NCBI GenBank assembly: GCA_017630195.1
Contig: JAGBVS010000146.1
Span: forward strand, 1-43,714
From: Bacteroidales bacterium
GTDB lineage: Bacteria > Bacteroidota > Bacteroidia > Bacteroidales > F082
Reading direction: 5' to 3'
Length of the DNA stretch: 43,714 bases
Below are positions 113-40,724 of this stretch, piece by piece. A program made the position numbers and the translations under genes. Under the pieces are notes generated by a model. It saw nothing but the letters and a program-made list of their open reading frames with translations. It made no database searches and was not told the origin of the DNA. How positions within the stretch are numbered: position 1 is the first letter of the stretch; each line of letters begins with the position of its first letter.

Positions 113-465
113 TTAGCTTGGACTACCTCAAAGATACATAATTTAAAGCAATTCACAACCAAGAAACAATTCGATAACGAACAACTTAAGTTGTATTCAA
201 TCTTTCAAAGATACATAATTTAAAGCAATTCACAACACACATCGCCCACATTATCACATCTTGTTTGTTGTATTCAATCTTTCAAAGATACATAATTTAA
301 AGCAATTCACAACATTATTACCGCAGTTTTGCGCAAGCACTGGTTGTATTCAATCTTTCAAAGATACATAATTTAAAGCAATTCACAACTCTGTTTAATT
401 GGTCATTTCCCAAAGTCGAGTTGTATTCAATCTTTCAAAGATACATAATTTAATACTATTACAAC
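113..465 (-). CRISPR. Five-repeat CRISPR array, type II-C-like 47-nt repeats
   Basis: Repeats lie at 113-159, 190-236, 267-313, 343-389 and 420-465, separated by four unrelated spacers of 30, 30, 29 and 30 nt. The three central repeats are identical 47-mers that begin GTTGTATTCAATC and end AATTCACAAC on the plus strand. Repeat 1 is diverged over its first 16 nt and repeat 5 over its last 15 nt (46 nt long), as expected for terminal copies. Repeats of 46-48 nt with a GTTGT...ACAAC frame and 30-nt spacers are typical of Cas9 type II-C loci in Bacteroidota. No cas1, cas2 or cas9 is present in the window, so they are beyond the left edge or absent. The minus-strand orientation is inferred from a TATCTTTG promoter box kept in all five repeats. 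The repeat centre holds a 13-nt palindrome, ATCTTTCAAAGAT. Confidence 0.95.
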
Positions 466-4080: not shown

Positions 4081-4114
4081 CTTTGTCCAAATTATAATTG
4101 AAATCTATTTTAAT

Positions 4115-4160
4115 AGACGCTTCAATGTGTGTTTATATTTTAGAAAACATTGAAGCGTCT
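4115..4160. repeat. Palindrome of the AGACGC...GCGTCT family
   Basis: Two perfectly complementary 14-nt arms, AGACGCTTCAATGT at 4115-4128 and ACATTGAAGCGTCT at 4147-4160, enclose an 18-nt loop. The element ends in GCGTCTCTACAATT, which is shared with the palindromes at 28612-28670 and 30221-30272. It lies in the short gap between aroE and tex. It is not followed by a T-run in either direction, so a simple terminator role is not supported. Confidence 0.85.
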
Positions 4161-4169
4161 CTACAATTC

Positions 4170-4949
4170 CTAACTCCTCCAAATCTCCCACGCCGCTTCG
4201 GCTTGTTTATGTAACATCGTCATTCCGTTGAAAGTAGAAGCTCCTTTTAAACGTGCTTTATTCAAAAATAGCGTCTCCTCCGGATTGTAAATCAAATCTA
4301 TGAAGACATGTTGCGCCTCAATGGTAGAGTAGGGAAGTTCTAAACATTCGTTAACATTTGGAAACATTCCCACCGGCGTCGTGTTTATTATAATGGAATA
4401 AGGTGAAAAACCCGTACGATTAATCTCCCCATAACTCACACCTAACTCCACACTCCTAACTCCTAACTTAAAAGCCCGACTCGCTATTAGAAACGGAATA
4501 TTCTTTTTATTTAATACATATTGAACCGCCTTCGACGCTCCGCCACTACCTAAAATCAAAGCTTCTTTATCACATGTGGTCTTGTAGTCTTGTAGTCTTG
4601 TGGTCTTATCTAAAAGATTCTCAAAACCAACCACATCAGTATTAAATCCTTTCAATCTTCCGTCTTCATAAATCTTCACTGTGTTAACGGCGCCGACTTC
4701 TTTTGCAGTCATGTCAATCTCGTCAAGAAATGGAATGATTTTTTCTTTATAAGGAACAGTGACGTTAAAACCTTTTAAGTTTTTATGTTCTTTGATATAT
4801 GGAATTATGTCACTTACATTATCAATTTCAATGTTTTGATAAGAATAATTAAGGTTTAGGTCGGAAAATTTCTTTGTGAAATAATCTTTTGAAAAAGAAT
4901 GTCCAAGCTTCTTTCCAACCAAACCATATACCTTATCAAAACTTTTCAT
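4170..4949 (-). CDS. aroE: Shikimate dehydrogenase with two repeat-derived insertions
   Basis: The 259-residue cytoplasmic enzyme reduces 3-dehydroshikimate to shikimate with NADPH in aromatic amino acid synthesis. It has the substrate-binding GHSFS motif, the catalytic lysine in NVTVPYKE (K68), the paired aspartate in GFNTD (D105), the nucleotide-binding GSGGAS loop (134-139) and NTTPVGM. It appears roughly ten residues longer than Bacteroides homologues as I recall them. The extra residues fall at 115-125 (KTTRLQDYKTT), encoded by four octads at 4575-4606, and at 161-173 (KLGVRSVELGVSY), encoded by heptads at 4432-4466. Both flank the Rossmann-fold core, where loops are expected. All key residues are intact, so it is probably active. 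It lies in a minus-strand series with the DUF368 gene upstream and tex downstream. Confidence 0.96.
   Translation of the reverse strand: MKSFDKVYGLVGKKLGHSFSKDYFTKKFSDLNLNYSYQNIEIDNVSDIIPYIKEHKNLKGFNVTVPYKEKIIPFLDEIDMTAKEVGAVNTVKIYEDGRLKGFNTDVVGFENLLDKTTRLQDYKTTCDKEALILGSGGASKAVQYVLNKKNIPFLIASRAFKLGVRSVELGVSYGEINRTGFSPYSIIINTTPVGMFPNVNECLELPYSTIEAQHVFIDLIYNPEETLFLNKARLKGASTFNGMTMLHKQAEAAWEIWRS
4432..4466 (-). repeat. Heptad array inside aroE, unit TTAGGAG
   Basis: Read on the coding strand, the units are TTAGGAG, TTAGGAG, TGTGGAG, TTAGGTG and TGAGTTA. Related units follow stop codons at 35329-35359 and at the end of aroE itself (GGAGTTAGGAATTG around 4164-4177). The third unit is the only one whose TAG would be in the aroE frame, and it reads TGTG there. 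Confidence 0.85.
4575..4606 (-). repeat. Octad array inside aroE, unit TGTAGTCT
   Basis: Four consecutive 8-bp units on the plus strand read TGTGGTCT, TGTAGTCT, TGTAGTCT and TGTGGTCT. The same unit forms intergenic arrays at 27427-27458, 28571-28610 (inverted) and 40677-40708. In the coding direction (AAGACTAC...) the unit has no stop trinucleotide in any frame, which explains why it can be translated. Confidence 0.9.
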
Positions 4950-4964
4950 ATCACTACATATCCT

Positions 4965-4999
4965 TTAGACATTAGACTTTAGCCTTTAGTCATTACTCA
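4965..4999. repeat. Heptad array abutting the DUF368 stop codon, unit TTAGACT
   Basis: Five heptads read TTAGACA, TTAGACT, TTAGCCT, TTAGTCA and TTACTCA. The last one contains the complement of the TGA stop of the DUF368 gene (4997-4999). Similar units recur at 40485-40512 and, inverted, at 11624-11644 and 21573-21600. Confidence 0.85.
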
Positions 5000-11177: not shown

Positions 11178-11587
11178 CAGCGGCAGTGTTTTGTATAGTC
11201 TTCCATATTAGGTCTGCCTTTGGCTTCAGCTATCTTGAAATAATAACAAGCCATGTCGTAATCGCTTATGCTTCTGTAATATAAGCCAATATTGAAATAA
11301 GCTTGTAGATAGTCAGGATTTAATTCTATGACTTTGAGATAGTCTTGTAAAGCTTCTTCTTTTTGGAAGATATTATATTTCGCGCATCCACGATGGAAGT
11401 AGGCTTCATGGTTTTCGGGGTTATATTTTATGGCTTGGTCAAAATATTCTATTGACTCTTCAAATTGGGAGCGATATAGATAATCGACGCCTTTATCACA
11501 TAAATTTCTTGATTTTTCAGGATTGTTGTTGCAACTTATCATGAATAAAACTAATCCTAATGTTATAATTTTAAATGCTTTTCTCAT
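11177..11587 (-). CDS. Small TPR lipoprotein
   Basis: The 136-residue product has a lipoprotein signal peptide ending LVLFMISC and three TPR units (VDYLYRSQFEESIEYFDQAI, AYFHRGCAKYNIFQKEEALQ, AYFNIGLYYRSISDYDMACY). It is predicted to be anchored in the periplasmic or outer membrane leaflet and to act as a protein-binding adaptor; the partner is unknown. It is coupled to the HAD hydrolase gene by a TGATG overlap. A -7 box, TATCTTTG, lies on the minus strand at 11611-11604. Confidence 0.88.
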   Translation of the reverse strand: MRKAFKIITLGLVLFMISCNNNPEKSRNLCDKGVDYLYRSQFEESIEYFDQAIKYNPENHEAYFHRGCAKYNIFQKEEALQDYLKVIELNPDYLQAYFNIGLYYRSISDYDMACYYFKIAEAKGRPNMEDYTKHCR

Positions 11588-11603
11588 ATTTATTTAATTT
11601 TTG

Positions 11604-11611
11604 CAAAGATA
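11604..11611 (-). promoter_or_regulatory. -7 box upstream of the TPR lipoprotein gene
   Basis: TATCTTTG on the minus strand, 17 bp before the ATG at 11587, matches the Bacteroidota -7 consensus exactly. Confidence 0.6.
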
Positions 11612-11623
11612 AAAAAAATGGCA

Positions 11624-11644
11624 AAAGTCTAAAGTTAAAAGTCT
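11624..11644. repeat. Heptad array, unit AAAGTCT
   Basis: Three units, AAAGTCT, AAAGTTA and AAAGTCT, lie about 20 bp beyond the stop codon of the DUF2279 gene and just upstream of the TPR lipoprotein promoter. Confidence 0.75.
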
Positions 11645-11664
11645 AATGTTTTTTTATTTTGTTT

Positions 11665-12630
11665 TTAAAAATAAAGCCAATATGCGCTAAATTTTCCTTG
11701 AGAGTCAATCATGACAGCCGGCATAGGAATCTTAATGAAACTCAACACTTTTAAGGTTGTTTTCAAGAATTTGTTCTCAACAGGGATTCTTGTTAAATCA
11801 ATATCTGGAGAAAGAACAAATTGTCGGGTTCGAGTAAATTCAGGTATTGTTTGACCGTTGTAACTACTTGCGTTATAGACAGCTCCTGTCATTCCGTCAG
11901 CGCTGTATCCTAATGCCAAATTCACCCATGATGGGAATTTCGAGTTTTCATCAAGGAATGACTTAATGTTACAAGAAACCCATATAGTTTGTCCGTTATA
12001 ATCTTTTAACATTTTTTCTGGTAGAGTGCTGCCAAGCAAATTGGGGCTATATTGAGGATATTGAGTGTGGTGATATGAATATTTCATTGATATTCTTTGT
12101 TCATGCCATAGAGCCTGTTGTCCCATGAACAAGCCTGTTCCCAAGGCATTGGCGACCATATCGCCCCACGAAAAGCCCCATCCTGACGACAAGCCATCAA
12201 AAATCTCCACGGTGCTAAGGAAGACAAATCCAACTGGGCCGCCATATAAATTTGCTTTTCTTTCATCACAACCGGCAAGACGAAGTGCTTCGTAACCAAG
12301 CATTCCCACATAATAAGAGGTCATGGAATGTCCCATTTTATCCATCTGTAGCCAGTTGTTATTGTCGTTATGTAAATGTAAAGGCTCCTGTTCATAATCG
12401 GCATACCATAAATAATAAAGCCCGCTCATTGTGCCTGCATAGATGGCAGCTTCAGCTCCCAAGACAATGCCAACATTTTTCTTAACATTCCTTAACGAAT
12501 CGCTTTGGATTGATATACTTTCTTGCGAAAACGTCGTCAAAGAGAAGAAGAGCAACAATGTCAAACTAAGTCTCTTAAACTTTGACTTTTGGAGTTTATT
12601 CCTGTTATATATTTTTTGCGAATTTATCAT
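11665..12630 (-). CDS. DUF2279 (YfiM-like) membrane-associated protein
   Basis: The 321-residue product has a signal peptide ending LLLFFSLTTFSQ. Its centre matches DUF2279: DKMGHSMTSYYVGMLGYEAL, then FVFLSTVEIFDGLSSGWGFS and GDMVANALGTGLFMGQQ. Conserved His and Asp residues and Gly-rich helices suggest an envelope-membrane protein, but no activity is established for the family. The C-terminal 130 residues (from about WVSCNIKSFLDE) look like beta strands and may sit in the outer membrane. It follows mltG by 50 bp on the same strand. Confidence 0.82.
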   Translation of the reverse strand: MINSQKIYNRNKLQKSKFKRLSLTLLLFFSLTTFSQESISIQSDSLRNVKKNVGIVLGAEAAIYAGTMSGLYYLWYADYEQEPLHLHNDNNNWLQMDKMGHSMTSYYVGMLGYEALRLAGCDERKANLYGGPVGFVFLSTVEIFDGLSSGWGFSWGDMVANALGTGLFMGQQALWHEQRISMKYSYHHTQYPQYSPNLLGSTLPEKMLKDYNGQTIWVSCNIKSFLDENSKFPSWVNLALGYSADGMTGAVYNASSYNGQTIPEFTRTRQFVLSPDIDLTRIPVENKFLKTTLKVLSFIKIPMPAVMIDSQGKFSAYWLYF

Positions 12631-16881: not shown

Positions 16882-17748
16882 ATGAGGCAGTTAAAAATTT
16901 CAAAATCTATTACCAATCGTGAGTTGGCATCGCTCGACAAGTATCTTGCCGACATTGCGAGAGAAGAACTGATTTCACCGGAAGAAGAAGTCGTTCTTGC
17001 GCAGAAGATAAGAGCTGGCGACGAACAAGCCCTCGAGAAATTGGTAAGAGCTAATTTAAGATTTGTTGTTTCGGTAGCGAAACAATATCAGAATCAGGGA
17101 ATCAGTTTGCCTGATTTGATTAACGAAGGTAATGTTGGACTGATTAAAGCTGCGCAGCGTTTTGATGAGACAAAAGGCTTCAAATTCATATCATACGCTG
17201 TGTGGTGGATACGTCAGTCAATCCTGCAAGCTGTGGCTGAACAGTCGCGATTGGTACGACTTCCATTAAACCAAGTAGGTTCTTTGTCGAAGATAAAAAA
17301 GACATCGTCGCGTCTCGAACAGCTTTATCATCGCCAGCCGACGATAAAGGAAATTGCGGAAGAGCTTGACCTTCCTGAACATAAAGTGATAGCAGCATTC
17401 CGCATGAACACCAAAGAGGTGTCGATGGATGCTCCAGTCGGAGAAGATGATGATTTGTCGTTGATAGACACCATCATTCCAGAAGAAGCTAAAGCAGCCG
17501 ACTATAACATAGTCCGCAAACTCGACAATGCTGAGATTCACCGTTCAATGTCAATTTTGACAGACAAGGAACGCGAGATAATAAATCTCTACTTCGGCAT
17601 TGATGCAACGCACAGCTACACTCTTGAAGAAATAGCTTACAGGCTTGACCTTACAAGAGAAAGAGTAAGACAAATTAAAGACAAAGCTCTTAAAAAATTA
17701 AAACAAAATCCGAGCAAGAATCTGCTTAAAATGTATTTGGATTGTTGA
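16882..17748 (+). CDS. rpoD: Primary RNA polymerase sigma factor (short Bacteroidota RpoD)
   Basis: At 288 residues this is the short form of the housekeeping sigma factor found in Bacteroidota, without the long region 1.1 and the non-conserved insertion of E. coli sigma-70. Region 1.2 is DKYLADIAREELISPEEEV, region 2 contains FVVSVAKQYQNQGISLPDLI and FISYAVWWIRQSI, region 3 RLPLNQVGSLSKIKK and region 4 YTLEEIAYRLDLTRERVRQI. This protein should be what reads the TAnnTTTG promoters seen across the window. An octad array and then a strong hairpin terminator follow its stop. Confidence 0.97.
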   Translation: MRQLKISKSITNRELASLDKYLADIAREELISPEEEVVLAQKIRAGDEQALEKLVRANLRFVVSVAKQYQNQGISLPDLINEGNVGLIKAAQRFDETKGFKFISYAVWWIRQSILQAVAEQSRLVRLPLNQVGSLSKIKKTSSRLEQLYHRQPTIKEIAEELDLPEHKVIAAFRMNTKEVSMDAPVGEDDDLSLIDTIIPEEAKAADYNIVRKLDNAEIHRSMSILTDKEREIINLYFGIDATHSYTLEEIAYRLDLTRERVRQIKDKALKKLKQNPSKNLLKMYLDC

Positions 17749-17751
17749 AGT

Positions 17752-17775
17752 CAACAAGACAACAAGACAACAAGT
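17752..17775. repeat. Octad array after rpoD, unit CAACAAGA
   Basis: Three units, CAACAAGA, CAACAAGA and CAACAAGT, begin three bases after the rpoD stop codon. Just before, TTGTTGA (containing the stop) pairs with TCAACAA at the array start. Confidence 0.85.
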
Positions 17776-17832: not shown

Positions 17833-19545
<1,713 letters not shown>

Positions 19546-26034: not shown

Positions 26035-27395
26035 AAAAAAACATCATTATAATAATATCAGTTTTGTTTCTTTCTTCATGTAAGATTGGAAAGGAATATG
26101 CCAAGATAGAAATGGATATTCCAAACAAGTTTTTGAGTTATACTCAAGACAGCACATGTTTTGCCGATATGAAATGGTGGGATGTTTATTCTGATACTAA
26201 TCTCGTAAATCTTATTCATTATACGTTGGAAAACAACAAAGACATGAAGATTGCTGCTGCAAAAGTAAAAGAAATGGTTGCAAGAAAGAAGATAAGCCAT
26301 GCTGACTTTTTTCCTCAGATTGGCGCCAGTGTTTATGGACAAGATGAGAAGCTTAACTATCAAGGTGATTTCAGCAATCCTCATGATATAGAATACGGGG
26401 CAAAAGCCAACATCAGTTGGGAACTTGATTTGTGGGGCAATTTGCGCTGGTCAAACGAGGCTGCTATTGCCGAATATCTTTCCTCCATTGAAGGACAAAA
26501 AGCCTTGATGATGAGTCTCGTCGCAGAAGTGGCAGAGAATTATTTTGAACTGATAGCATTAGACAACGAACTCCTCATCGTGAAACAGACACTTAGCGCA
26601 AGAGAGGAAAGCGTGCGACTCGCCAAAATTCGTTTTGAAGGAGGTCTTACAAGCGAGACATCATATCAGCAAGCAAAATTAGAATATGCAAAGAAAGCTA
26701 CATTAGTCCCCGATTTGGAAAAGAAAATAGCGATGAAGGAAAATGAGATTCTTGCCTTGTCGGGCACTTTTCCAAAAAGAGTAGATAGAAATGTGACGCA
26801 AAATAATCTGATATTGCCAGATACGATTCCTGTAGGACTGCCCTCGGATTTGATGGAAAGAAGACCTGACATCAGAAAGGCCGAACAAAAACTCATAGCG
26901 GCAAACGCCAAAGTAGGAGTGAGTTACACTAATATGTTTCCAAGAATAGCCCTGACTTCAAACGTCGGTTTTGAGACTGATGTGTTCGCTACGCTGTTGT
27001 CGTCGCCAATGTTTTTTATAAGTTCAAACCTTATGTCGCCGGTTTTCAACATGGGTAAAAATAAAGCTAAATATAAAGCCCAGCTTGCTGCCTACGAACA
27101 AGAATGTTATAATTACGAAAAGGTGGTTATCTCCGCTTTCTATGATGTGATGAACGCTTTGATTGAATTTGACAAGATCAAGCAGGTTTATGAAACACGT
27201 TTGCTTTTAAAAGAATCAGCTAAGGTCACTATGGAATTGGCGCAGCTGCAGTATATTAATGGTGTAATAGGCTATCTTGACGTACTCGACGCTCAGAGAA
27301 ATTATTTCGATGCCCAGATAAGCCTCAGCAATGCTTATCGCGACAAACAAATCACCATGGTGAAATTATATAAAGCCTTGGGGGGAGGGTATTGA
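26031..27395 (+). CDS. Outer-membrane efflux channel lipoprotein (OprM/NodT-like)
   Basis: The 454-residue TolC-family protein has a lipoprotein signal (VLFLSSC, Cys17) and the two-fold repeated OEP domain with long helices, for example VAENYFELIALDNELLIVKQ and the NodT signature GLPSDLMERRPDIRKAEQKL. It forms the outer-membrane exit duct of the tripartite pump. Translation is coupled to the pump gene through an ATGA overlap. An octad array begins a few bases after its stop. Confidence 0.95.
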   Translation: MKKNIIIIISVLFLSSCKIGKEYAKIEMDIPNKFLSYTQDSTCFADMKWWDVYSDTNLVNLIHYTLENNKDMKIAAAKVKEMVARKKISHADFFPQIGASVYGQDEKLNYQGDFSNPHDIEYGAKANISWELDLWGNLRWSNEAAIAEYLSSIEGQKALMMSLVAEVAENYFELIALDNELLIVKQTLSAREESVRLAKIRFEGGLTSETSYQQAKLEYAKKATLVPDLEKKIAMKENEILALSGTFPKRVDRNVTQNNLILPDTIPVGLPSDLMERRPDIRKAEQKLIAANAKVGVSYTNMFPRIALTSNVGFETDVFATLLSSPMFFISSNLMSPVFNMGKNKAKYKAQLAAYEQECYNYEKVVISAFYDVMNALIEFDKIKQVYETRLLLKESAKVTMELAQLQYINGVIGYLDVLDAQRNYFDAQISLSNAYRDKQITMVKLYKALGGGY

Positions 27396-27398
27396 GAA

Positions 27399-27460
27399 GA
27401 CTATAAGACCATAAGACTATAAGTGCTTGTAGTCTTGTAGTCTTGTGGACTTGTAGTCTT
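27399..27460 (+). repeat. Inverted pair of octad arrays forming a long hairpin
   Basis: Three units (GACTATAA, GACCATAA, GACTATAA at 27399-27422) are followed four bases later by four units (TTGTAGTC, TTGTAGTC, TTGTGGAC, TTGTAGTC at 27427-27458). The second array is roughly the reverse complement of the first, so RNA could fold as a long stem with G-U pairs around a TG loop. It lies directly after the efflux operon and may end its transcript. Confidence 0.85.
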
Positions 27461-27502
27461 AAATAAAACCAAATCCTATTTTAAACGTTTTAGCATTTGA
27501 AA

Positions 27503-28570
27503 ATGATTCTTATGTTGAGACGTTTAATTTTATTAATAATTATAATTATTTCTGCTGTTTCATTAAAGGCGGAAGGCGAGGAGTTGTCAGTTGGAGTGAC
27601 AAACAGTCCGCCTTTTATCATTATTGAAAATGATGAGATTTCAGGTATCACGATTGATTTATGGAACGTGATATCCGATTCGCTAAACGTGAATTATCAT
27701 TTCGTTCAGACAGATTATGAAAAAGTAGTGACGAATATATCCGAAGGCGAAATCAATATTTCCATTGCACCGATGGCAATAAACTCATCTCATGCCGACA
27801 GCACATTTTATACGCAGCCGTTTTATATTACGTCGATGTGCGTTGCCGTTGAAAATCATTATGAGTCAGGATTTGTGACCATAGTAAAAAATCTTTTCTC
27901 TCTTTCATTTTTAAAAACAATAGGATTACTTCTGTTAATAAATTTTAGCATTGGAACATTAATATGGCTGGCTGAGAGAAAAAACAATCCAGCTTTTGAC
28001 AATAAAGTTAATGGTATCATCGACGGATTCTGGTGGTCGTGGGTGACGATGACGACAGTAGGTTATGGCGACAAATCGCCGCAGAGCAAGAACGGCAAAA
28101 TATTAGCGACAATCTGGATGTTAGTAGCGATTTTGATTATCAGCGGCTTCACCGCGACTATTTCTTCAGAATTGACGACAAAAAGATTACAGAATAACGT
28201 AAGTAATCTTCACGATTTGCATAAGATGAAAGTCGGATGTCTTGAAGGAAGGAACACGTCTATTTATTTGGATTACAAACATATAAAATACAAGAAATAT
28301 TTATCTTTTGAAGAAGCTTTCGAAGCCTTGGAAAAAGGAGAGATAAACGCTTTGGTGGATGATGGCGCGACATTAAACTATTATTTCAATAAAAAGGAAA
28401 AGAGTTTAACGAAGAAAATAACATTGATAGAACTGCCTAACAATAAGGAATATTATTGTTTTATGTCGTCGCAGCCATATCTTGTCAACAAGATAAATCC
28501 GTATTTGCTCAGTTTCTTGGAATCGGAAGACTGGAACAAACTCTTGAAGAAGTATGGACTTGGGGAGTAA
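27503..28570 (+). CDS. GluR0-like ligand-gated potassium channel
   Basis: The 355-residue protein has the prokaryotic ionotropic glutamate receptor layout. A signal peptide (about 1-23) is followed by S1 of a periplasmic binding domain (24-125), TM1 (139-157), a pore helix with the potassium filter TTVGYGDKSP (184-193), TM2 (200-220) and S2 (about 240-350). In glutamate receptors an Arg in S1 holds the ligand's alpha-carboxylate; here the matching stretch is PMAINSSHADS, with His98 at that place, while an acidic pair in S2 (D286-D287) is kept. The ligand may thus not be a standard amino acid. There is no M4 helix, as in GluR0. It begins 107 bp after the efflux operon, and an octad array starts right after its stop. 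A truncated binding protein fused to a Kv-like pore describes it equally well. Confidence 0.88.
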   Translation: MILMLRRLILLIIIIISAVSLKAEGEELSVGVTNSPPFIIIENDEISGITIDLWNVISDSLNVNYHFVQTDYEKVVTNISEGEINISIAPMAINSSHADSTFYTQPFYITSMCVAVENHYESGFVTIVKNLFSLSFLKTIGLLLLINFSIGTLIWLAERKNNPAFDNKVNGIIDGFWWSWVTMTTVGYGDKSPQSKNGKILATIWMLVAILIISGFTATISSELTTKRLQNNVSNLHDLHKMKVGCLEGRNTSIYLDYKHIKYKKYLSFEEAFEALEKGEINALVDDGATLNYYFNKKEKSLTKKITLIELPNNKEYYCFMSSQPYLVNKINPYLLSFLESEDWNKLLKKYGLGE

Positions 28571-28610
28571 AGACTACAAGACTACGAGACTACAAGACTA
28601 CAAGACTACA
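28571..28610. repeat. Octad array after the channel gene, unit AGACTACA
   Basis: Five consecutive 8-bp units begin on the first base after the stop codon: AGACTACA, AGACTACG, AGACTACA, AGACTACA and AGACTACA. The unit is the reverse complement of the one at 27427-27458, 40677-40708 and inside aroE. Confidence 0.95.
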
Positions 28611-28611
28611 A

Positions 28612-28670
28612 GTAGAGACGTACCAATTACACCAATGAAAATAAACAATATGTAATTGATGCGTCTCTAC
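28612..28670. repeat. GTAGAGACG...CGTCTCTAC palindrome
   Basis: Two 20-nt arms (28612-28631 and 28651-28670) match in 18 positions as an inverted repeat. The outermost nine bases are GTAGAGACG and CGTCTCTAC, and the inner parts are CAATTACA and TGTAATTG. The element is separated from the octad array by one base. It looks like a short extragenic palindromic element. Confidence 0.9.
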
Positions 28671-33651: not shown

Positions 33652-35343
33652 ATGAGCAGAAAATTATTTTTATCATTTATCTTTACAATTATCTTGTTGA
33701 CAGCCAGTGCACAGCAGCGTCTCACTTATCAAATCTATTCGCTCGGTTCAAACAACGGTGACACAACTTTCGTGGAATTGTGCCGCTACGGAAATCAGAC
33801 TAAATTTCAAGACGTTAATACTTATGAAGGTAAATTGATTCCAGGAATATCTGAAGACATCACTTACGTTAATTATGAAACCGACAGCGCTTATTTCCAA
33901 ATGAAATATGCCGACGGCGATTCTTTCTTCGCATCTTTCCCTTTAAAATCTAATATCGAATTCACCGAAGAAGGCAACGAAAAAATCAACGGCTACGATT
34001 GCAAAAAATATCGTACAAGCATCAATTCCAATACTATTGATATTTGGATGACAGAATCTCTCGGATATAACGCAATGCCGTCTGTAAGCAGAGGCGTGCT
34101 CAAAGGTGTCATGGTCCGCCAACTCATAAACGGCAACAGAATGTTCGAATTGAGAGATATTAAAAAAGACAGAAAAATCAAAAAAGAAATTATACCTGCT
34201 GATATGGGTCAGCGTGTCGCACCAAGAGACATCGACAAAATTTCTAAAGACAAACTCATCATCAAGACTCCTATCTTCGACAAAGAACAGATTCATTTCG
34301 CTGAGATAGAAAAATTCAAAGGCGAAATACCATACGACACTGTCATTCATTTCGCTTACGGAACTTTGATTTTAAAAAGAGTAAATCTTGACACTCTTCC
34401 AGAACATTATTCTTATTTCATTGAAGTTGAAGAACAGTCTAACGGCGATGCTTACGACCGCTCTGGCTCTATATTCGTCATCCCAACAGACAGAAAATTG
34501 AGTTTAATAGATGCTTTAATTGACAGCATACAAATACTTCATTCTTATACAGATAGAAGAGACATTACTTACAGAGCAATCAAGTTGGAAGACGACTTCC
34601 TTCCTGTAGTTGAGCTCATGCGTTTCTTCACTCCATTCGGTGTCAATCATTTCAACGACAGAGTCAAGATTGACGGTTTGGAATGGTCTGATGTGGCTTA
34701 TTACAAACAAGAGGTCACTGATGTCGCTAAACATCTCTGCGGCGATGTCTTGATCGGTGCTTTCATCAGCAATTACGATGGCGGCGGCCATAAGTTAAGC
34801 ATGGATATTCTCGCTTATCCAGGTTCTTATTCCTGGGATTTAAGTTATAACGACGACTGGACATTACCTTTATTCAACACATGTAACGTAATGGAGATGG
34901 CTGGTCAGCATTATTGTCGTATGTTCAAGACAGACAGCCTCACCGTTGAATTTGAAATTCCTGAAAATGTCAGCGACCTTCGTTTAAGATATATCAGCAC
35001 AGGCCACGGCGGCTGGGGTGGAGGCGATGAGTTCAACCCAAAGGAAAACACCATCATCATCGACGGAGAAAAAGTGTTCACTCATACACCATGGCGCTGC
35101 GACTGCGCTACTTACAGAGAAATGAATCCTGTTTCTGGTAACTTCTGGAACGGACAGTCGTCATCAGATTTGTCACGCTCAGGATGGTGTCCTGGAACAG
35201 CGACACAGCCAGTTTACTTCGACTTGTCATTCTTGAAGCCAGGAAAACATACAATCACAATAGCAATACCACAAGGCGACGATGAAGGAAGCAGCTTCAA
35301 CCACTGGATGGTGTCGGGAATCCTTATTGGAGTTAGTAATTAG
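33652..35343 (+). CDS. PNGase F-like protein with an N-terminal GLPGLI-like domain
   Basis: The 563-residue product has a signal peptide (LFLSFIFTIILLTASA). Residues about 22-175 resemble the GLPGLI/DUF4412 family (INGYDCKKYR, IDIWMTESLGY). Residues about 230-563 match the two-domain fold of peptide-N4-(N-acetyl-beta-glucosaminyl)asparagine amidase F, which removes N-glycans from glycoproteins. The match is strongest near the C terminus (STGHGGWGGGDEF, WRCDCATYREMNP, SSSDLSRSGWCPG). By eye, D269 in AYDRSGS fits catalytic D60 and E460 in GGDEF fits E206 of the Elizabethkingia enzyme. The residue at the E118 position is unclear (near F371). It is exported and could release N-glycans from host or dietary glycoproteins. 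Its last codons (VSN-stop) lie within a heptad array. Confidence 0.88.
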   Translation: MSRKLFLSFIFTIILLTASAQQRLTYQIYSLGSNNGDTTFVELCRYGNQTKFQDVNTYEGKLIPGISEDITYVNYETDSAYFQMKYADGDSFFASFPLKSNIEFTEEGNEKINGYDCKKYRTSINSNTIDIWMTESLGYNAMPSVSRGVLKGVMVRQLINGNRMFELRDIKKDRKIKKEIIPADMGQRVAPRDIDKISKDKLIIKTPIFDKEQIHFAEIEKFKGEIPYDTVIHFAYGTLILKRVNLDTLPEHYSYFIEVEEQSNGDAYDRSGSIFVIPTDRKLSLIDALIDSIQILHSYTDRRDITYRAIKLEDDFLPVVELMRFFTPFGVNHFNDRVKIDGLEWSDVAYYKQEVTDVAKHLCGDVLIGAFISNYDGGGHKLSMDILAYPGSYSWDLSYNDDWTLPLFNTCNVMEMAGQHYCRMFKTDSLTVEFEIPENVSDLRLRYISTGHGGWGGGDEFNPKENTIIIDGEKVFTHTPWRCDCATYREMNPVSGNFWNGQSSSDLSRSGWCPGTATQPVYFDLSFLKPGKHTITIAIPQGDDEGSSFNHWMVSGILIGVSN

Positions 35344-35359
35344 GAGTTAGGAATTGAGG
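35329..35359. repeat. Heptad array over the PNGase F-like stop codon, unit GGAGTTA
   Basis: Units read GGAGTTA, GTAATTA, GGAGTTA, GGAATTG and AGG. The first two encode the last residues and the TAG stop (35341-35343). Confidence 0.9.
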
Positions 35360-35375
35360 AACTAAGTGCATGAGG

Positions 35376-35443: not shown

Positions 35444-35495
35444 ATAATTAGGAATGGAATGTCCTAAAAATAATTAGGAATGGAATGTCCTAAAA
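35444..35495. repeat. Exact 26-bp tandem duplication
   Basis: The 26-mer at 35444-35469 is repeated without change at 35470-35495. Each copy contains the dyad TTAGGA...TCCTAA around ATGGAATG. The duplication is identical, so it is probably recent. Confidence 0.95.
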
Positions 35496-35544
35496 ATAAT
35501 TATGAGATTTTGATTTTTGAATCTCTGAGATTTTAATAAATTAT

Positions 35545-35571: not shown

Positions 35572-36693
35572 TTGAAAATAGCTGTAAATACACGATTATT
35601 ACTCAAAGACAAGCTTGAAGGCATCGGCTGGGTGGCTTACGAATGTCTGCGTCGTATGGTGAAATCTCATCCTGAGGTGGAGTTTCATTTCATCTTCGAC
35701 CGCGAACCCGACCCAAAATTTATCTTCGCCGATAATGTGAAGCCGGTAGTTCTCATCCCTCCGGCACGTCATCCTTTCTTGTACATAGCGTTCTTCGAAT
35801 TCGCTGTCGCAAGATACCTTCGTAAGATAAAAGCAGATTTATATTTGTCTCCTGACGGATATTTGAGTCTGAGAAGCAAGACTAAGCAAATAGCTGTTTT
35901 CCACGACTTAAACTTCGAGCATTTCCCGCAGGATTTCCCCAAAATTCATCTTTGGCATTACAAGAAATTCTTCCCGAGATACGCAAAGAAAGCAGATAAG
36001 ATTATAACTGTTTCTGAATTTTCAAAAAAAGACATCTGCGAATGTTATGGAATCAATCCAGAGAAGATAAACGTGGCTTATAATGGAGCCAATGAAATTT
36101 TTTCTCCTGTAAATGAAGAAATTAAAAATGAAATAAGAAATAAATATTCGGAAGGAAAACCTTATTTCATGTTCGTAGGCTCTCTGCATCCACGCAAGAA
36201 TCTCGCCCGTCTTTTCACTTCTTTTGATTTATTTAAGAAAAGAAATAACAACGACATAAAACTCGTCATTGTCGGCAGCAAGAGATGGTGGACGGAGCCT
36301 ATAAAAAATGCATACGAATCAATGACATATAAAAACGATGTGATTTTCACCGGACGATTGTCGGCAGAAGATTTACATCTCGTCACAGCGTCAGCGTTGG
36401 CTTCTGTCTATGTCTCTTATTTTGAAGGATTTGGCATTCCTATCGTCGAGGCTTTCAAGTGCGATACTCCTGTCATAACGTCTAACGTAACGTCAATGCC
36501 TGAAGTGGCAGCAGACGCAGCTCTGCTCGTAGACCCATTCAAAGAAGAATCTATAGCAGAAGCAATGGAAAAGATTTTAGATGAAGAAGTGCGCAACGAT
36601 TTAATAGAAAAAGGAAGAATCAGACGACAAGACTTCTCTTGGGACAAGGCAGCGGAGACATGGTGGAAGGTTTGCAGTGATGTAGTGATGTAG
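35572..36693 (+). CDS. GT4-family glycosyltransferase
   Basis: The 373-residue protein starts with TTG, as no ATG lies at the natural N terminus KIAVNTRLLLKDKLEGIGWV. It has the GT-B fold: an N-terminal acceptor domain and a C-terminal donor domain with YFMFVGSLHPRKNLARLF and the E-x7-E motif in SYFEGFGIPIVEAFKC. It probably adds a sugar, perhaps mannose, to a surface glycan or lipid-linked precursor. No polysaccharide cluster surrounds it. The last five residues (SDVVM) and the stop are encoded by the first units of an octad array, so the C-terminal tail is repeat-derived. Confidence 0.92.
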   Translation: MKIAVNTRLLLKDKLEGIGWVAYECLRRMVKSHPEVEFHFIFDREPDPKFIFADNVKPVVLIPPARHPFLYIAFFEFAVARYLRKIKADLYLSPDGYLSLRSKTKQIAVFHDLNFEHFPQDFPKIHLWHYKKFFPRYAKKADKIITVSEFSKKDICECYGINPEKINVAYNGANEIFSPVNEEIKNEIRNKYSEGKPYFMFVGSLHPRKNLARLFTSFDLFKKRNNNDIKLVIVGSKRWWTEPIKNAYESMTYKNDVIFTGRLSAEDLHLVTASALASVYVSYFEGFGIPIVEAFKCDTPVITSNVTSMPEVAADAALLVDPFKEESIAEAMEKILDEEVRNDLIEKGRIRRQDFSWDKAAETWWKVCSDVVM

Positions 36694-36730
36694 TAATGTA
36701 GTAATGTAGTGATGTAGTGATGTGGTGATT
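36676..36730. repeat. Octad array over the GT4 stop codon, unit AGTGATGT
   Basis: Six or more units read AGTGATGT, AGTGATGT, AGTAATGT, AGTAATGT, AGTGATGT and AGTGATGT, then a worn copy. The stop codon of the GT4 gene is at 36691-36693 inside the second unit. Confidence 0.95.
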
Positions 36731-36738
36731 GTTTGTAA

Positions 36739-36764
36739 ACTTCATTACTTCAAAACTTCATTAC
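36739..36764. repeat. Octad array, unit ACTTCATT, partner of the preceding array
   Basis: Units read ACTTCATT, ACTTCAAA, ACTTCATT and AC. The sequence is partly complementary to 36676-36730 (GTAATGTAG against CTTCATTAC), so a hairpin is possible. Confidence 0.8.
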
Positions 36765-36799
36765 AAAAAAAGATAATTAAAAAAACTAAATAAAAAAAT

Positions 36800-38080
36800 A
36801 TGAATATCTTAGTATTAGGTTCAGGTGGTCGTGAGTATGCTTTCGCATGGAAGCTCGCTCAAAGTGACTTGGTTAACAAACTTTATATCGCTCCAGGTAA
36901 TGCTGGAACAAACGCAATAGGCGAGAATCTCGCTATCAACATCGCTGATTTCAATATCGTAAAAGAAAACGTATTGAAACTCAACATCGAAATGGTCGTT
37001 GTCGGTCCGGAGCAGCCTCTCGTGGACGGCATCGTCGATTTCTTCAAAAATGATGAAGAGTTAAAAAACATTAAGATTATTGGTCCTGATCAAAAAGGCG
37101 CTCAACTCGAAGGCAGCAAGGCATTTGCAAAGGCTTTCATGGAAAAATATAATGTACCAACAGCTTCATGTTTCACAGTGACATCTGCTAATCTCGAAGA
37201 TGGATTGCAATATCTCACAACACAAAAAGCTCCTTATGTTCTTAAAGCCGACGGCCTCGCAGCAGGTAAAGGCGTTCTCATCATCGACTCATTGGAAGAA
37301 GCTCAAAATGAATTGAAAGACATGCTTTCTGGCAAGTTTGGCTCTGCTTCTGCAAAAGTCGTTATCGAAACATTCTTGAAAGGTATCGAAGTCTCTATGT
37401 TCGTCTTGACTGACGGAGAACATTATATCGTTCTTCCTGAAGCAAAAGACTACAAACGCATCGGCGACGGCGACACAGGCTTGAACACAGGCGGCATGGG
37501 CGCAGTTTCTCCAGTTCCTTTCGTGACACCGGAATTCGTTGAAAAGGTAGAGAACAGAATCATAAAACCAACAATAAAAGGTCTCAAAGAAGAAAACATC
37601 GACTATAAAGGTTTTATCTTCATCGGTTTGATGAACGTTGACGGCGACCCTTACGTCATCGAATATAACGTAAGAATGGGCGACCCTGAAACCGAAGGCG
37701 TCATGACACGCATCGACTCCGACTTAGTAGCATTGCTCGACGCTTGCGCCCAAGGCAAGTTGAATGAAGTTGAATATCAAACATCAAAGAACACTTCTGT
37801 GACGGTAATGCTCGTCTCTGGCGGCTATCCTGAAGATTACAAAAAAGGAATGGTAATGACAGGATTCGAAGAATTATCAGACTGCATCATCGCTCATGCC
37901 GGCACAAAATTCAACGACAAAGGTGAAATAGTGACATCAGGCGGCCGTGTCATAGCAGTGACTGCTCACGGAAAAAATATTGAAGAAGCAAGAGCTAAGG
38001 CTTATCAAAATGTAGAAAAAATCAAGTTTGAAGGCGTCAACTATCGTCACGACATCGGTCTTGACTTGATGAATCTCTAA
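36800..38080 (+). CDS. purD: Phosphoribosylamine-glycine ligase
   Basis: The 426-residue ATP-grasp enzyme makes glycinamide ribonucleotide in purine synthesis. It has the N-terminal NILVLGSGGREYAFAWKL, the ATP-grasp segment YVLKADGLAAGKGVLI, the metal-binding region EYNVRMGDPETEGVM and the C-terminal SGGRVIAVTAHG. It is the first gene of a tight plus-strand unit with the DUF6427-like gene (4 bp away) and rnhB. No clear promoter box was found in the repeat-filled gap upstream. Confidence 0.97.
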   Translation: MNILVLGSGGREYAFAWKLAQSDLVNKLYIAPGNAGTNAIGENLAINIADFNIVKENVLKLNIEMVVVGPEQPLVDGIVDFFKNDEELKNIKIIGPDQKGAQLEGSKAFAKAFMEKYNVPTASCFTVTSANLEDGLQYLTTQKAPYVLKADGLAAGKGVLIIDSLEEAQNELKDMLSGKFGSASAKVVIETFLKGIEVSMFVLTDGEHYIVLPEAKDYKRIGDGDTGLNTGGMGAVSPVPFVTPEFVEKVENRIIKPTIKGLKEENIDYKGFIFIGLMNVDGDPYVIEYNVRMGDPETEGVMTRIDSDLVALLDACAQGKLNEVEYQTSKNTSVTVMLVSGGYPEDYKKGMVMTGFEELSDCIIAHAGTKFNDKGEIVTSGGRVIAVTAHGKNIEEARAKAYQNVEKIKFEGVNYRHDIGLDLMNL

Positions 38081-40667: not shown

Positions 40668-40676
40668 TAATTAAAA

Positions 40677-40708
40677 CTTGTAGTCTTGTGGTCTTGTAGT
40701 CTTGTTGA
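40677..40708. repeat. Octad array, unit CTTGTAGT
   Basis: Units read CTTGTAGT, CTTGTGGT, CTTGTAGT and CTTGTTGA. This is the same family as the octads in aroE. Confidence 0.9.
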
Positions 40709-40724
40709 CTTAAAAAAAACCTCT

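What the first reader, a model, noticed from the sequence alone, without database searches (positions are those of the whole stretch)
4432..4606. Two intergenic repeat families are inserted in frame in aroE, and the in-frame stop has been removed
Seen: aroE contains four octads (4575-4606) and five heptads (4432-4466) of the same families found between genes. The heptad TTAGGAG contains TAG. With a 7-bp period that TAG falls in the aroE frame only in the third unit (4446-4452), and only that unit reads TGTG instead of TTAG. The octad orientation is the one without a stop in any frame. Known: AroE positions next to the GSGGAS nucleotide loop tolerate length change, and homologues as I recall them lack these residues. 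Inference: the arrays entered or grew inside a working gene, and selection removed the stop.
Basis: partly seen in the sequence, partly recalled or inferred. Interest (0 to 1): 0.88.

Follow-up and report, generated by a model that had tools for sequence, protein, structure and literature searches.

The report
Repeat elements living inside working genes
In a group of uncultured gut bacteria, short repeat elements that normally sit between genes are also lodged in frame inside conserved enzymes such as AroE, where they keep their place while their repeat sequence is swapped from species to species.

Summary
The octads in AroE are one copy of a discrete ~36-bp element (four 8-bp units RAGWCNNC plus RAG-T; 36 bp = 12 codons). 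Such arrays occur about 10 times per 100 kb in sampled stretches of four related gut MAGs, between genes and, in frame, inside conserved enzymes (AroE, QueA, AroA, heptose epimerase, an ABC lipoprotein, an acyltransferase, a DUF819 protein). One identical 36-mer lies in three genes of one genome, read in different frames or strands, so it is copied as DNA. At six orthologous in-gene sites the element keeps its place, mostly its length too, but its units change: 90% identical within an array, 74% between species; unit base 7 never differs within these arrays, but in 68% of comparisons between species. In the stretches sampled, base 7 is A in the window's genome (177/194 units), C in a sister genome (130/147). 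AroE's heptad array is four units, not five, shared by close relatives, absent from an outgroup; its stop-critical unit is stop-free in three species. 'Selection removed the stop' is not proven. Closest known kinds: Rickettsia palindromic elements, STRR heptads, REPs. The engine is unknown.

The parts
4170..4949 (-). aroE, shikimate dehydrogenase, 259 aa, open frame; Lys68 and Asp105 (catalytic pair; E. coli Lys65/Asp102 recalled) invariant in alignments of 10 and 36 sequences
4572..4607 (-). site A: octad element AAGACCAC AAGACTAC AAGACTAC AAGACCAC ATGT, 36 bp, residues 115-126 (KTTRLQDYKTTC)
4439..4466 (-). site B: four heptads TTAGGAG TTAGGAG TGTGGAG TTAGGTG, in residues 162-171
4446..4452 (-). 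phase-critical third heptad TGTGGAG, where TTAGGAG would give an in-frame TAG
4111..4164 (.). palindrome GTAGAGACGCTTCAATGT...ATTGAAGCGTCTATTA just 3' of aroE; a palindrome of the same GTAGAGACG type sits inside aroE site B of relative L031
4053..4082 (.). intergenic heptads GTCAACG GACAACA GACAACG GTCAACT GTC
4965..4995 (.). heptads of the TTAGACA family in the spacer 5' of aroE
17748..17775 (+). octads AAGTCAAC AAGACAAC AAGACAAC AAGT; the first A is the last base of the stop codon of the gene 16882-17748
27396..27461 (.). two facing octad arrays (AAGACTAT then CTTGTAGT) directly after the ORF ending at 27395: hairpin pair
28569..28616 (+). octads AAGACTAC at the end of the ORF 27497-28570
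40673..40712 (-). intergenic octads AAGTCAAC AAGACTAC AAGACCAC AAGACTAC AAGT
36676..36764 (.). octads AGTGATGT followed by an inverted octad array; the same spacer in G009 holds an inverted pair of heptads instead
35329..35360 (+). heptads GGAGTTA/GGAATTA overlapping the ORF end at 35343

Best explanation
Both segments are resident copies of dispersed short repeat elements that this clade of gut Bacteroidales carries by the hundred (extrapolated from sampled stretches). The octad one is a discrete element of about 36 bp, four 8-bp units RAGWCNNC closed by RAG(T). Because 36 bp is 12 codons and one strand of the commonest unit has no stop in any frame, a copy landing that way round in a surface loop, linker or N-terminal segment keeps the gene open. 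Copies are made at DNA level (shown: one identical 36-mer in three genes of one genome, read in different frames or strands). Once resident, the element stays at its site through species divergence, mostly keeping its length, while its units are replaced or homogenised as DNA, regardless of codon phase (shown as a pattern at six sites). That this happens by ectopic conversion or template switching between dispersed copies is inferred; the enzyme, if any, is unknown. The heptad array of site B is a member of a sister heptad family, kept where the in-frame unit carries no stop. AroE is inferred to work (conserved catalytic residues, open frame in the relatives searched).
For: Density: 9.1-10.8 octad arrays (three or more anchors) per 100 kb in the sampled stretches of G000, G009, G060, G061; 1 in 80 kb of G027; 0 in 233 kb of seven other genomes of the same genus; 1 in one round of trinucleotide-Markov resampling of the four genomes' stretches. 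Fixed size: four anchors is the mode inside ORFs (31 of 53), between genes (46 of 79) and at gene edges (25 of 53); TRF copy number has its mode at 4.5 for periods 7 (81 of 438) and 8 (68 of 429) but not 6, 9 or 10. Copying: AAGACACC(GAGACACC)x3AAGT in G060 lies in aroE as KTPRHRDTETPS, in the heptose-epimerase gene as ERHRDTETPRHQ and, on the other strand, in aroA as DLVSRCLGVSVS; flanks are unlike except for TTGAT(A) left of two of them. Sites held, units changed: six orthologous in-gene sites, 19 arrays: within-array unit identity 0.905 (114 pairs), same unit between species 0.737 (88 pairs); base 7 differs 0.00 within and 0.68 between. Base 7 over all sampled arrays: A 177 of 194 in G000, C 130 of 147 in G060 (the scan's anchor fixes bases 1-5 only). 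Array-free sites in outgroups. Orientation in ORFs 39 to 14 in favour of the RAGWC strand.
Against: Lengths are not all 36 bp (DUF819 has 9.5, 7.5 and 4.5 units). The right junction at aroE site A differs in G000 (it keeps a flank GATAAAGAAGCT that G009, G060 and G061 lack), so one shared insertion is not proved there. In-gene units do not simply match the commonest unit of their genome: G009 has 81 AAGACTAC dimers but its aroE carries AAGTCACC (8 dimers); in G061 the one AAGACTAC dimer found is the aroE one. G009 and G061 are mixed at base 7 (163 A, 63 C of 242; 71 A, 102 C of 188). Identical mixed-unit copies exceed the null clearly in G009 (4 pairs against 0.10, max 2) and G060 (4 against 0.19, max 3), not decisively in G000 (8 against 1.16, max 11), and are 0 in G061; the null ignores local homogenisation. 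No candidate enzyme: Y1 transposase in 2 of 4 array-rich genomes and 6 of 8 others, reverse transcriptase in 3 of 4 and 5 of 8.
Confidence: 0.7

Rival explanations
1. Ordinary slippage: the arrays grew in place from chance seeds by 7- or 8-bp strand slippage, and the reading frame filtered the survivors; unit uniformity is slippage homogenisation.
For: Within-array uniformity; unit numbers that vary at DUF819 (9.5, 7.5, 4.5) and at the lipoprotein site 2 (4.5, 1.5); that 7-bp repeats may favour slippage is an idea quoted in PMC4679880 (passage).
Against: Seeds would give random units, yet AAGACTAC dimers match 107 times in G000 with 0 for the reversed pattern; the modal unit number is the same (four) inside and outside genes; an identical mixed 36-mer sits in three unrelated genes; stepwise 8-bp slips pass through frameshifts.
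Confidence: 0.15
2. The arrays are binding or structural sites (for a protein, or RNA hairpins) maintained by selection on DNA or RNA, inside genes too; the base-7 switch follows a change in the reader's specificity.
For: Bases 2, 3, 5 and 8 of the unit hardly vary within or between species while 1, 4, 6 and 7 do, at sites read in three codon phases; of 18 adjacent opposite-strand pairs 17 face each other as hairpin arms, 13 of 13 once five hits that overlap on one stretch are dropped; 5 of 21 listed intergenic arrays lie 5-9 bp from CAAAGATA.
Against: Arrays at syntenic spacers can belong to different families and periods in different species, and 3 of 10 spacers with an array have it in one genome only; copying from a pool that shares a core gives the same conservation.
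Confidence: 0.1
3. Contingency loci: 8- and 7-bp arrays switch aroE and other genes on and off by frameshift.
For: Periods not divisible by three inside genes; such repeats cause phase variation elsewhere (general knowledge).
Against: The main aroE, queA, acyltransferase and DUF819 hits have no stop inside; four units is short for frequent slippage; targets are largely housekeeping enzymes.
Confidence: 0.03
4. Old protein sequence that happens to look like the repeats.
For: The fifth heptad overlaps conserved Ser-Tyr codons; loop length varies naturally in AroE (L003, L050).
Against: Absent in outgroups; the same nucleotide unit is read in all three frames and on both strands; same units between genes.
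Confidence: 0.02

Closest known systems
[quoted passage not shown] details of the original work recalled)
   Same: A dispersed intergenic repeat also found in frame inside genes for likely functional proteins.
   Different: RPEs are palindromes; the aroE element is a one-armed tandem array of four octads, and its units are replaced between species while the site is kept. Different phylum.
STRR heptanucleotide repeats of cyanobacteria (passage in PMC2670836; Vioque 1997 on STRR inside the RNase P RNA gene seen only as a title in a reference list)
   Same: Short tandem 7-bp units, dispersed, able to form hairpins, reported inside a functional RNA gene.
   Different: Here octads make the element described, in Bacteroidales, inside protein genes, with a four-unit mode.
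TAACTGA heptads of Beggiatoaceae, Cyanobacteria and five Bacteroidetes (PMC4679880, abstract and passages)
   Same: Tandem 7-bp repeats near genes; the paper discusses stop codons as a limit to coding copies.
   Different: One fixed unit there, mostly just upstream of start codons; here many units, a modal array size and in-gene copies with unit turnover.
REP / GTAG- and CGTC-tagged palindromes and REPINs with RAYT (PMC3733652 passages; PMC3116915 and PMC8049555 seen only in the search listing with opening abstract lines)
   Same: Small dispersed element populations, some inside genes, inverted pairs.
   Different: No palindromic core in the single octad element; Y1 transposase found in 2 of 4 array-rich genomes only.

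Membership tests
Shikimate dehydrogenase (AroE) | Family profile match and catalytic residues | tested here: met
   Pfam PF08501 81.5 bits (cut-off 27); TIGR00507 193.5 bits (cut-off 200.2, just under); Lys68, Asp105 invariant; catalytic role of the pair recalled
Rickettsia palindromic elements | In-frame insertion in ORFs of likely functional proteins | tested here: met
Rickettsia palindromic elements | The element is a palindrome | tested here: not met
   aroE site A is a direct array without an inverted arm; inverted pairs occur elsewhere
STRR | Tandem heptanucleotide unit | tested here: inconclusive
   met by site B and many intergenic heptads, not by the octads
REP/REPIN with RAYT | Short palindromic core | tested here: not met
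   the single octad element is a direct array
REP/REPIN with RAYT | Y1 (RAYT-type) transposase in the genome | tested here: inconclusive
   PF01797 in G000 and G009, none found in G060 and G061 (drafts), present in 6 of 8 array-poor genomes
Phase-variable simple sequence repeat | Unit number varies between cells or strains, switching the frame | not testable with these tools

The most novel reading that the evidence does not exclude
These bacteria run an active DNA-level copy-and-replace process that keeps rewriting hundreds of four-unit arrays across the genome, including those locked inside core enzymes, so that most of a genome's arrays come to share a unit base (A in one species, C in its sister) while staying in place; peptide loops and signal sequences are thereby rewritten from a non-coding template pool.
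Probability: 0.3. Interest if true: 0.9.

Novelty: new variant of a known kind. Interest (0 to 1): 0.75.

Why it matters
Protein sequence is normally thought to change by mutation and selection on the gene itself. Here twelve-residue segments of core enzymes come from, and are apparently refreshed by, a pool of non-coding repeats, with the same DNA read in different frames in different genes. It gives a natural test bed for how new protein segments arise and for concerted evolution of dispersed short repeats in bacteria. It is also a caution for annotation and phylogeny: among 27 window genes matched in G009:C80, AroE (75.8%) is the second least conserved, values running from 71.6 to 97.3%, in part perhaps because of the inserts; and one relative's AroA has 539 residues against 424 in the window's genome, the difference lying largely in repeat insertions.

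Tried and rejected
Old protein sequence: rejected for the array cores, kept for the fifth heptad. Pure slippage: kept as a rival, weakened by the modal unit number and the shared 36-mer. Idea that each genome's in-gene arrays simply match its commonest unit: not upheld in G009 and G061. Reverse transcriptase (telomerase-like templated addition) and RAYT transposase as the engine: no association with array-rich genomes. Idea that DUF819 arrays differ only by three-unit steps: first read as 10, 7, 4 from the anchor scan, corrected to 9.5, 7.5, 4.5 by direct reading. Visual impression that the promoter spacer at 11587-11665 carries arrays in four species: only G000 and G009 pass the 0.78 self-match threshold, so not claimed. 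Paper searches for exact units or peptides gave 0 papers; octamer or heptamer repeats with Bacteroidales or Lentimicrobiaceae gave nothing on the subject among the 15 listed of 28; others, listings only except for the passages named. The library holds open-licence papers only, so this is no proof of absence.

Limits and rows dropped: the six-site comparison left out G060 at lipoprotein site 2 (1.5 units), G027 there (heptads), G061 at the acyltransferase (heptads) and at QueA (mixed 8- and 6-bp units), and used the first four units of DUF819. In one search, 35 of 80. The TRF survey has no shuffle control and includes weak arrays. One search drew 295 genomes of the order, four of them of the window's genus, its own included; G009 and G061, known carriers, were not in the draw. 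ORFs are mechanical, not gene calls. Contigs for stretches were chosen from those already hit by octad or aroE searches, so densities may be somewhat high.

Full report
WHAT WAS CHECKED. aroE occupies 4170-4949 on the minus strand. Read codon by codon, the octad stretch is AAGACCAC AAGACTAC AAGACTAC AAGACCAC ATGT (4572-4607, residues 115-126) and the heptad stretch TTAGGAG TTAGGAG TGTGGAG TTAGGTG (4439-4466). Both families exceed chance in the window (18 matches against 0.24 expected; 11 against 2.75) and recur between genes.

RELATIVES. A search of 60 relatives found AroE in 54, and a named collection gave 80 loci. G009 (77% identical), G060 = RGIG7428 from water buffalo colon (75%) and G061 = Lentimicrobiaceae SIG106 (69%) carry repeats at both sites; G027 = SIG105 (62%) carries neither in aroE. 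At site A: G000 AAGACTAC-type, G009 AAGACACC(AAGTCACC)x3AAGT, G060 AAGACACC(GAGACACC)x3AAGT, G061 GAGTCAAC(AAGACTAC)x2AAGACAACGAGT, each 36 bp. The more distant G020 has heptads (CTCATTC) in the same loop, a separate colonisation by inference. At site B, G000 and G009 have four heptads each, G061 a decayed set, and G060 a GTAGAGACG...CGTCTATC palindrome beside a heptad remnant. The stop-critical third unit is TGTG, TGAG and CGAG in G000, G009 and G061. By syntenic genes the order of kinship is G009, G060, G061, G027 (97.3, 94.2, 90.6 and 86.7% for the gene at 17935).

NOT ONLY AROE. A TRF survey of 334 kb of G000 found period-7/14 arrays 11 inside ORFs, 14 at edges, 27 between ORFs, and period-8/16 arrays 9, 13 and 38, with 91% of the sequence in ORFs; no shuffle control was run for this survey and it includes weak arrays. 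Four further genes with in-gene octads were searched in 10 genomes: QueA found in 10 (in G025 only a distant paralogue), an ABC-type peptide-binding lipoprotein in 9, an acyltransferase in 6, a DUF819 protein in 5 (families). The lipoprotein has two octad sites and a signal peptide built from heptads. Array-free states are seen in G027 (QueA, acyltransferase, DUF819), G061 (lipoprotein site 3, DUF819) and the more distant genomes that have the gene. The pattern is the same each time: same place, different unit. At lipoprotein site 3 all four carriers have four units plus AAGT (36 bp), with main units AAGACTAC, AAGACGCC, AAGACACC and AAGTCAAC. At site 2, G060 has three units fewer than G000 and G009 (24 bp).

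A DISCRETE ELEMENT. An anchor scan (RAGWC every 8 bp, at least three anchors) of the stretches held finds four anchors as the commonest size inside ORFs (31 of 53), between genes (46 of 79) and at edges (25 of 53); one round of Markov resampling gave 1 array in four genomes. A count of five can be a four-unit array whose closing AAG is followed by [AT]C. Because the mode is the same outside genes, the reading frame did not set it; 36 bp happens to be twelve codons. TRF copy numbers have their mode at 4.5 for periods 7 and 8 but not 6, 9 or 10. Of 18 adjacent opposite-strand pairs, 17 face each other; five of the 18 are overlapping hits on one stretch, and the remaining 13 all face, so many copies are hairpin pairs. 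The AAGACTAC dimer matches 107 times in G000, 81 in G009, once in G061, and in 1 of 295 genomes drawn across the order, the window's own: the family looks lineage-specific.

COPIED AS DNA. In G060 the identical 36-mer lies in aroE, in an ADP-glyceromanno-heptose 6-epimerase gene (TIGR02197, 356.8 bits, cut-off 274.6) and, on the other strand, in aroA (TIGR01356, 229.8 bits against a cut-off of 287.25; the G000 AroA scores 260), read as KTPRHRDTETPS, ERHRDTETPRHQ and DLVSRCLGVSVS. This is the strongest single point: the peptide differs, the DNA is the same, the flanks are unlike but for TTGAT(A) left of two of them.

UNITS ARE REPLACED IN PLACE. Over six sites and 19 arrays, two units of one array agree at 90.5% of bases (114 pairs), the same unit in two species at 73.7% (88 pairs). 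Base 7 never differs within an array and differs in 68% of comparisons between species; bases 2, 3, 5 and 8 hardly vary in either. As successive units are read in different codon phases, protein-level selection cannot make them alike. Over all sampled arrays, base 7 is A in 177 of 194 units of G000 and C in 130 of 147 of G060, mixed in G009 (163 A, 63 C of 242) and G061 (71 A, 102 C of 188). G+C content hardly differs (38.1 and 40.0%), so bulk composition is not the reason.

BETWEEN GENES. Of 10 syntenic spacers that hold a period-7 or -8 array in at least one genome, 7 hold one in two or more and 3 in one only; not every genome could be compared at each (7 of 500 shuffled 120-bp spacers pass the threshold, and longer spacers would pass more often). 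In the spacer at 36693-36800, G000 has facing octads and G009 facing heptads. So whole arrays, not just units, are exchanged.

MECHANISM. Shown: dispersed element, modal size, DNA-level identity across frames, sites kept while units change. Inferred: ectopic conversion or template switching between copies; tolerance in loops because one strand is stop-free and 36 bp keeps frame; AroE still works. The AlphaFold2 model puts site B in a floppy loop (pLDDT 58, mean 93) and site A in a linker helix at 75-83; the best PDB match by sequence, 1nvt, has a five-residue gap at site A. Unknown: the engine. Neither a Y1 transposase nor a reverse transcriptase tracks the array-rich genomes, with the caveat that these are drafts.

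AGAINST. The right edge at aroE site A differs in G000; the in-gene unit is not always the genome's commonest; length is not always 36 bp; the excess of identical mixed copies is clear in two genomes of four. The finding's 'selection removed the stop' cannot be told from 'the unit was stop-free when it came': stop-free TGAGGAR units are 8 of 27 in G009 and 11 of 98 in G060 arrays, but 0 of 16 in G000.

KNOWN KIND. In-frame dispersed repeats are known from Rickettsia (stated in PMC3733652, passages), heptad STRRs from cyanobacteria (PMC2670836, passage) and TAACTGA heptads in five Bacteroidetes among others (PMC4679880, abstract and passages). What I did not find in the searches made is a four-octad element in protein genes with unit replacement in place. 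I file it as a new variant of a known kind.

Noticed in passing
L161:1274-2893 (relative G060): AroA of this relative has 539 residues against 424 in G000; by pairwise alignment it carries at least four insertions that look repeat-derived: a hairpin repeat (PELVEG...LRQAQQL) with octads (DLVSRCLGVSVS), octads (YLGVSVTRCLGV), a third repeat type (CDSRDPWMSN...WRSNPCDTWR) and heptads (LKVQSSELKVQSSELKVQSS).
   Followed up: partly
L264 (G000:C158:6557), L266, L267, L268/L273: The hydrophobic core of a lipoprotein signal peptide is built from heptad repeats of different units in four species (for example GCTCATT in G060, TTGTTAATTCTACA in G027 and G061), while G009 has an ordinary one.
   Followed up: partly
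window 190-389: A 77-bp tandem repeat, 2.6 copies, at the left end of the window.
   Followed up: no
window 35444-35502: A perfect 26-bp tandem repeat, 2.3 copies, in a spacer.
   Followed up: no
L255 (G061 QueA): The QueA loop of G061 holds a long mixed array of 8-bp (CCCCGTGT) and then 6-bp (GTGTCA-type) units, still in frame.
   Followed up: no
L169:10097, L171:12556, L191:14739, L193:10787, L207:109: 5 of 21 listed intergenic octad arrays lie 5-9 bp from CAAAGATA, the complement of the Bacteroidota -7 promoter box TATCTTTG (box recalled), as if arrays occupy the -33 region.
   Followed up: partly
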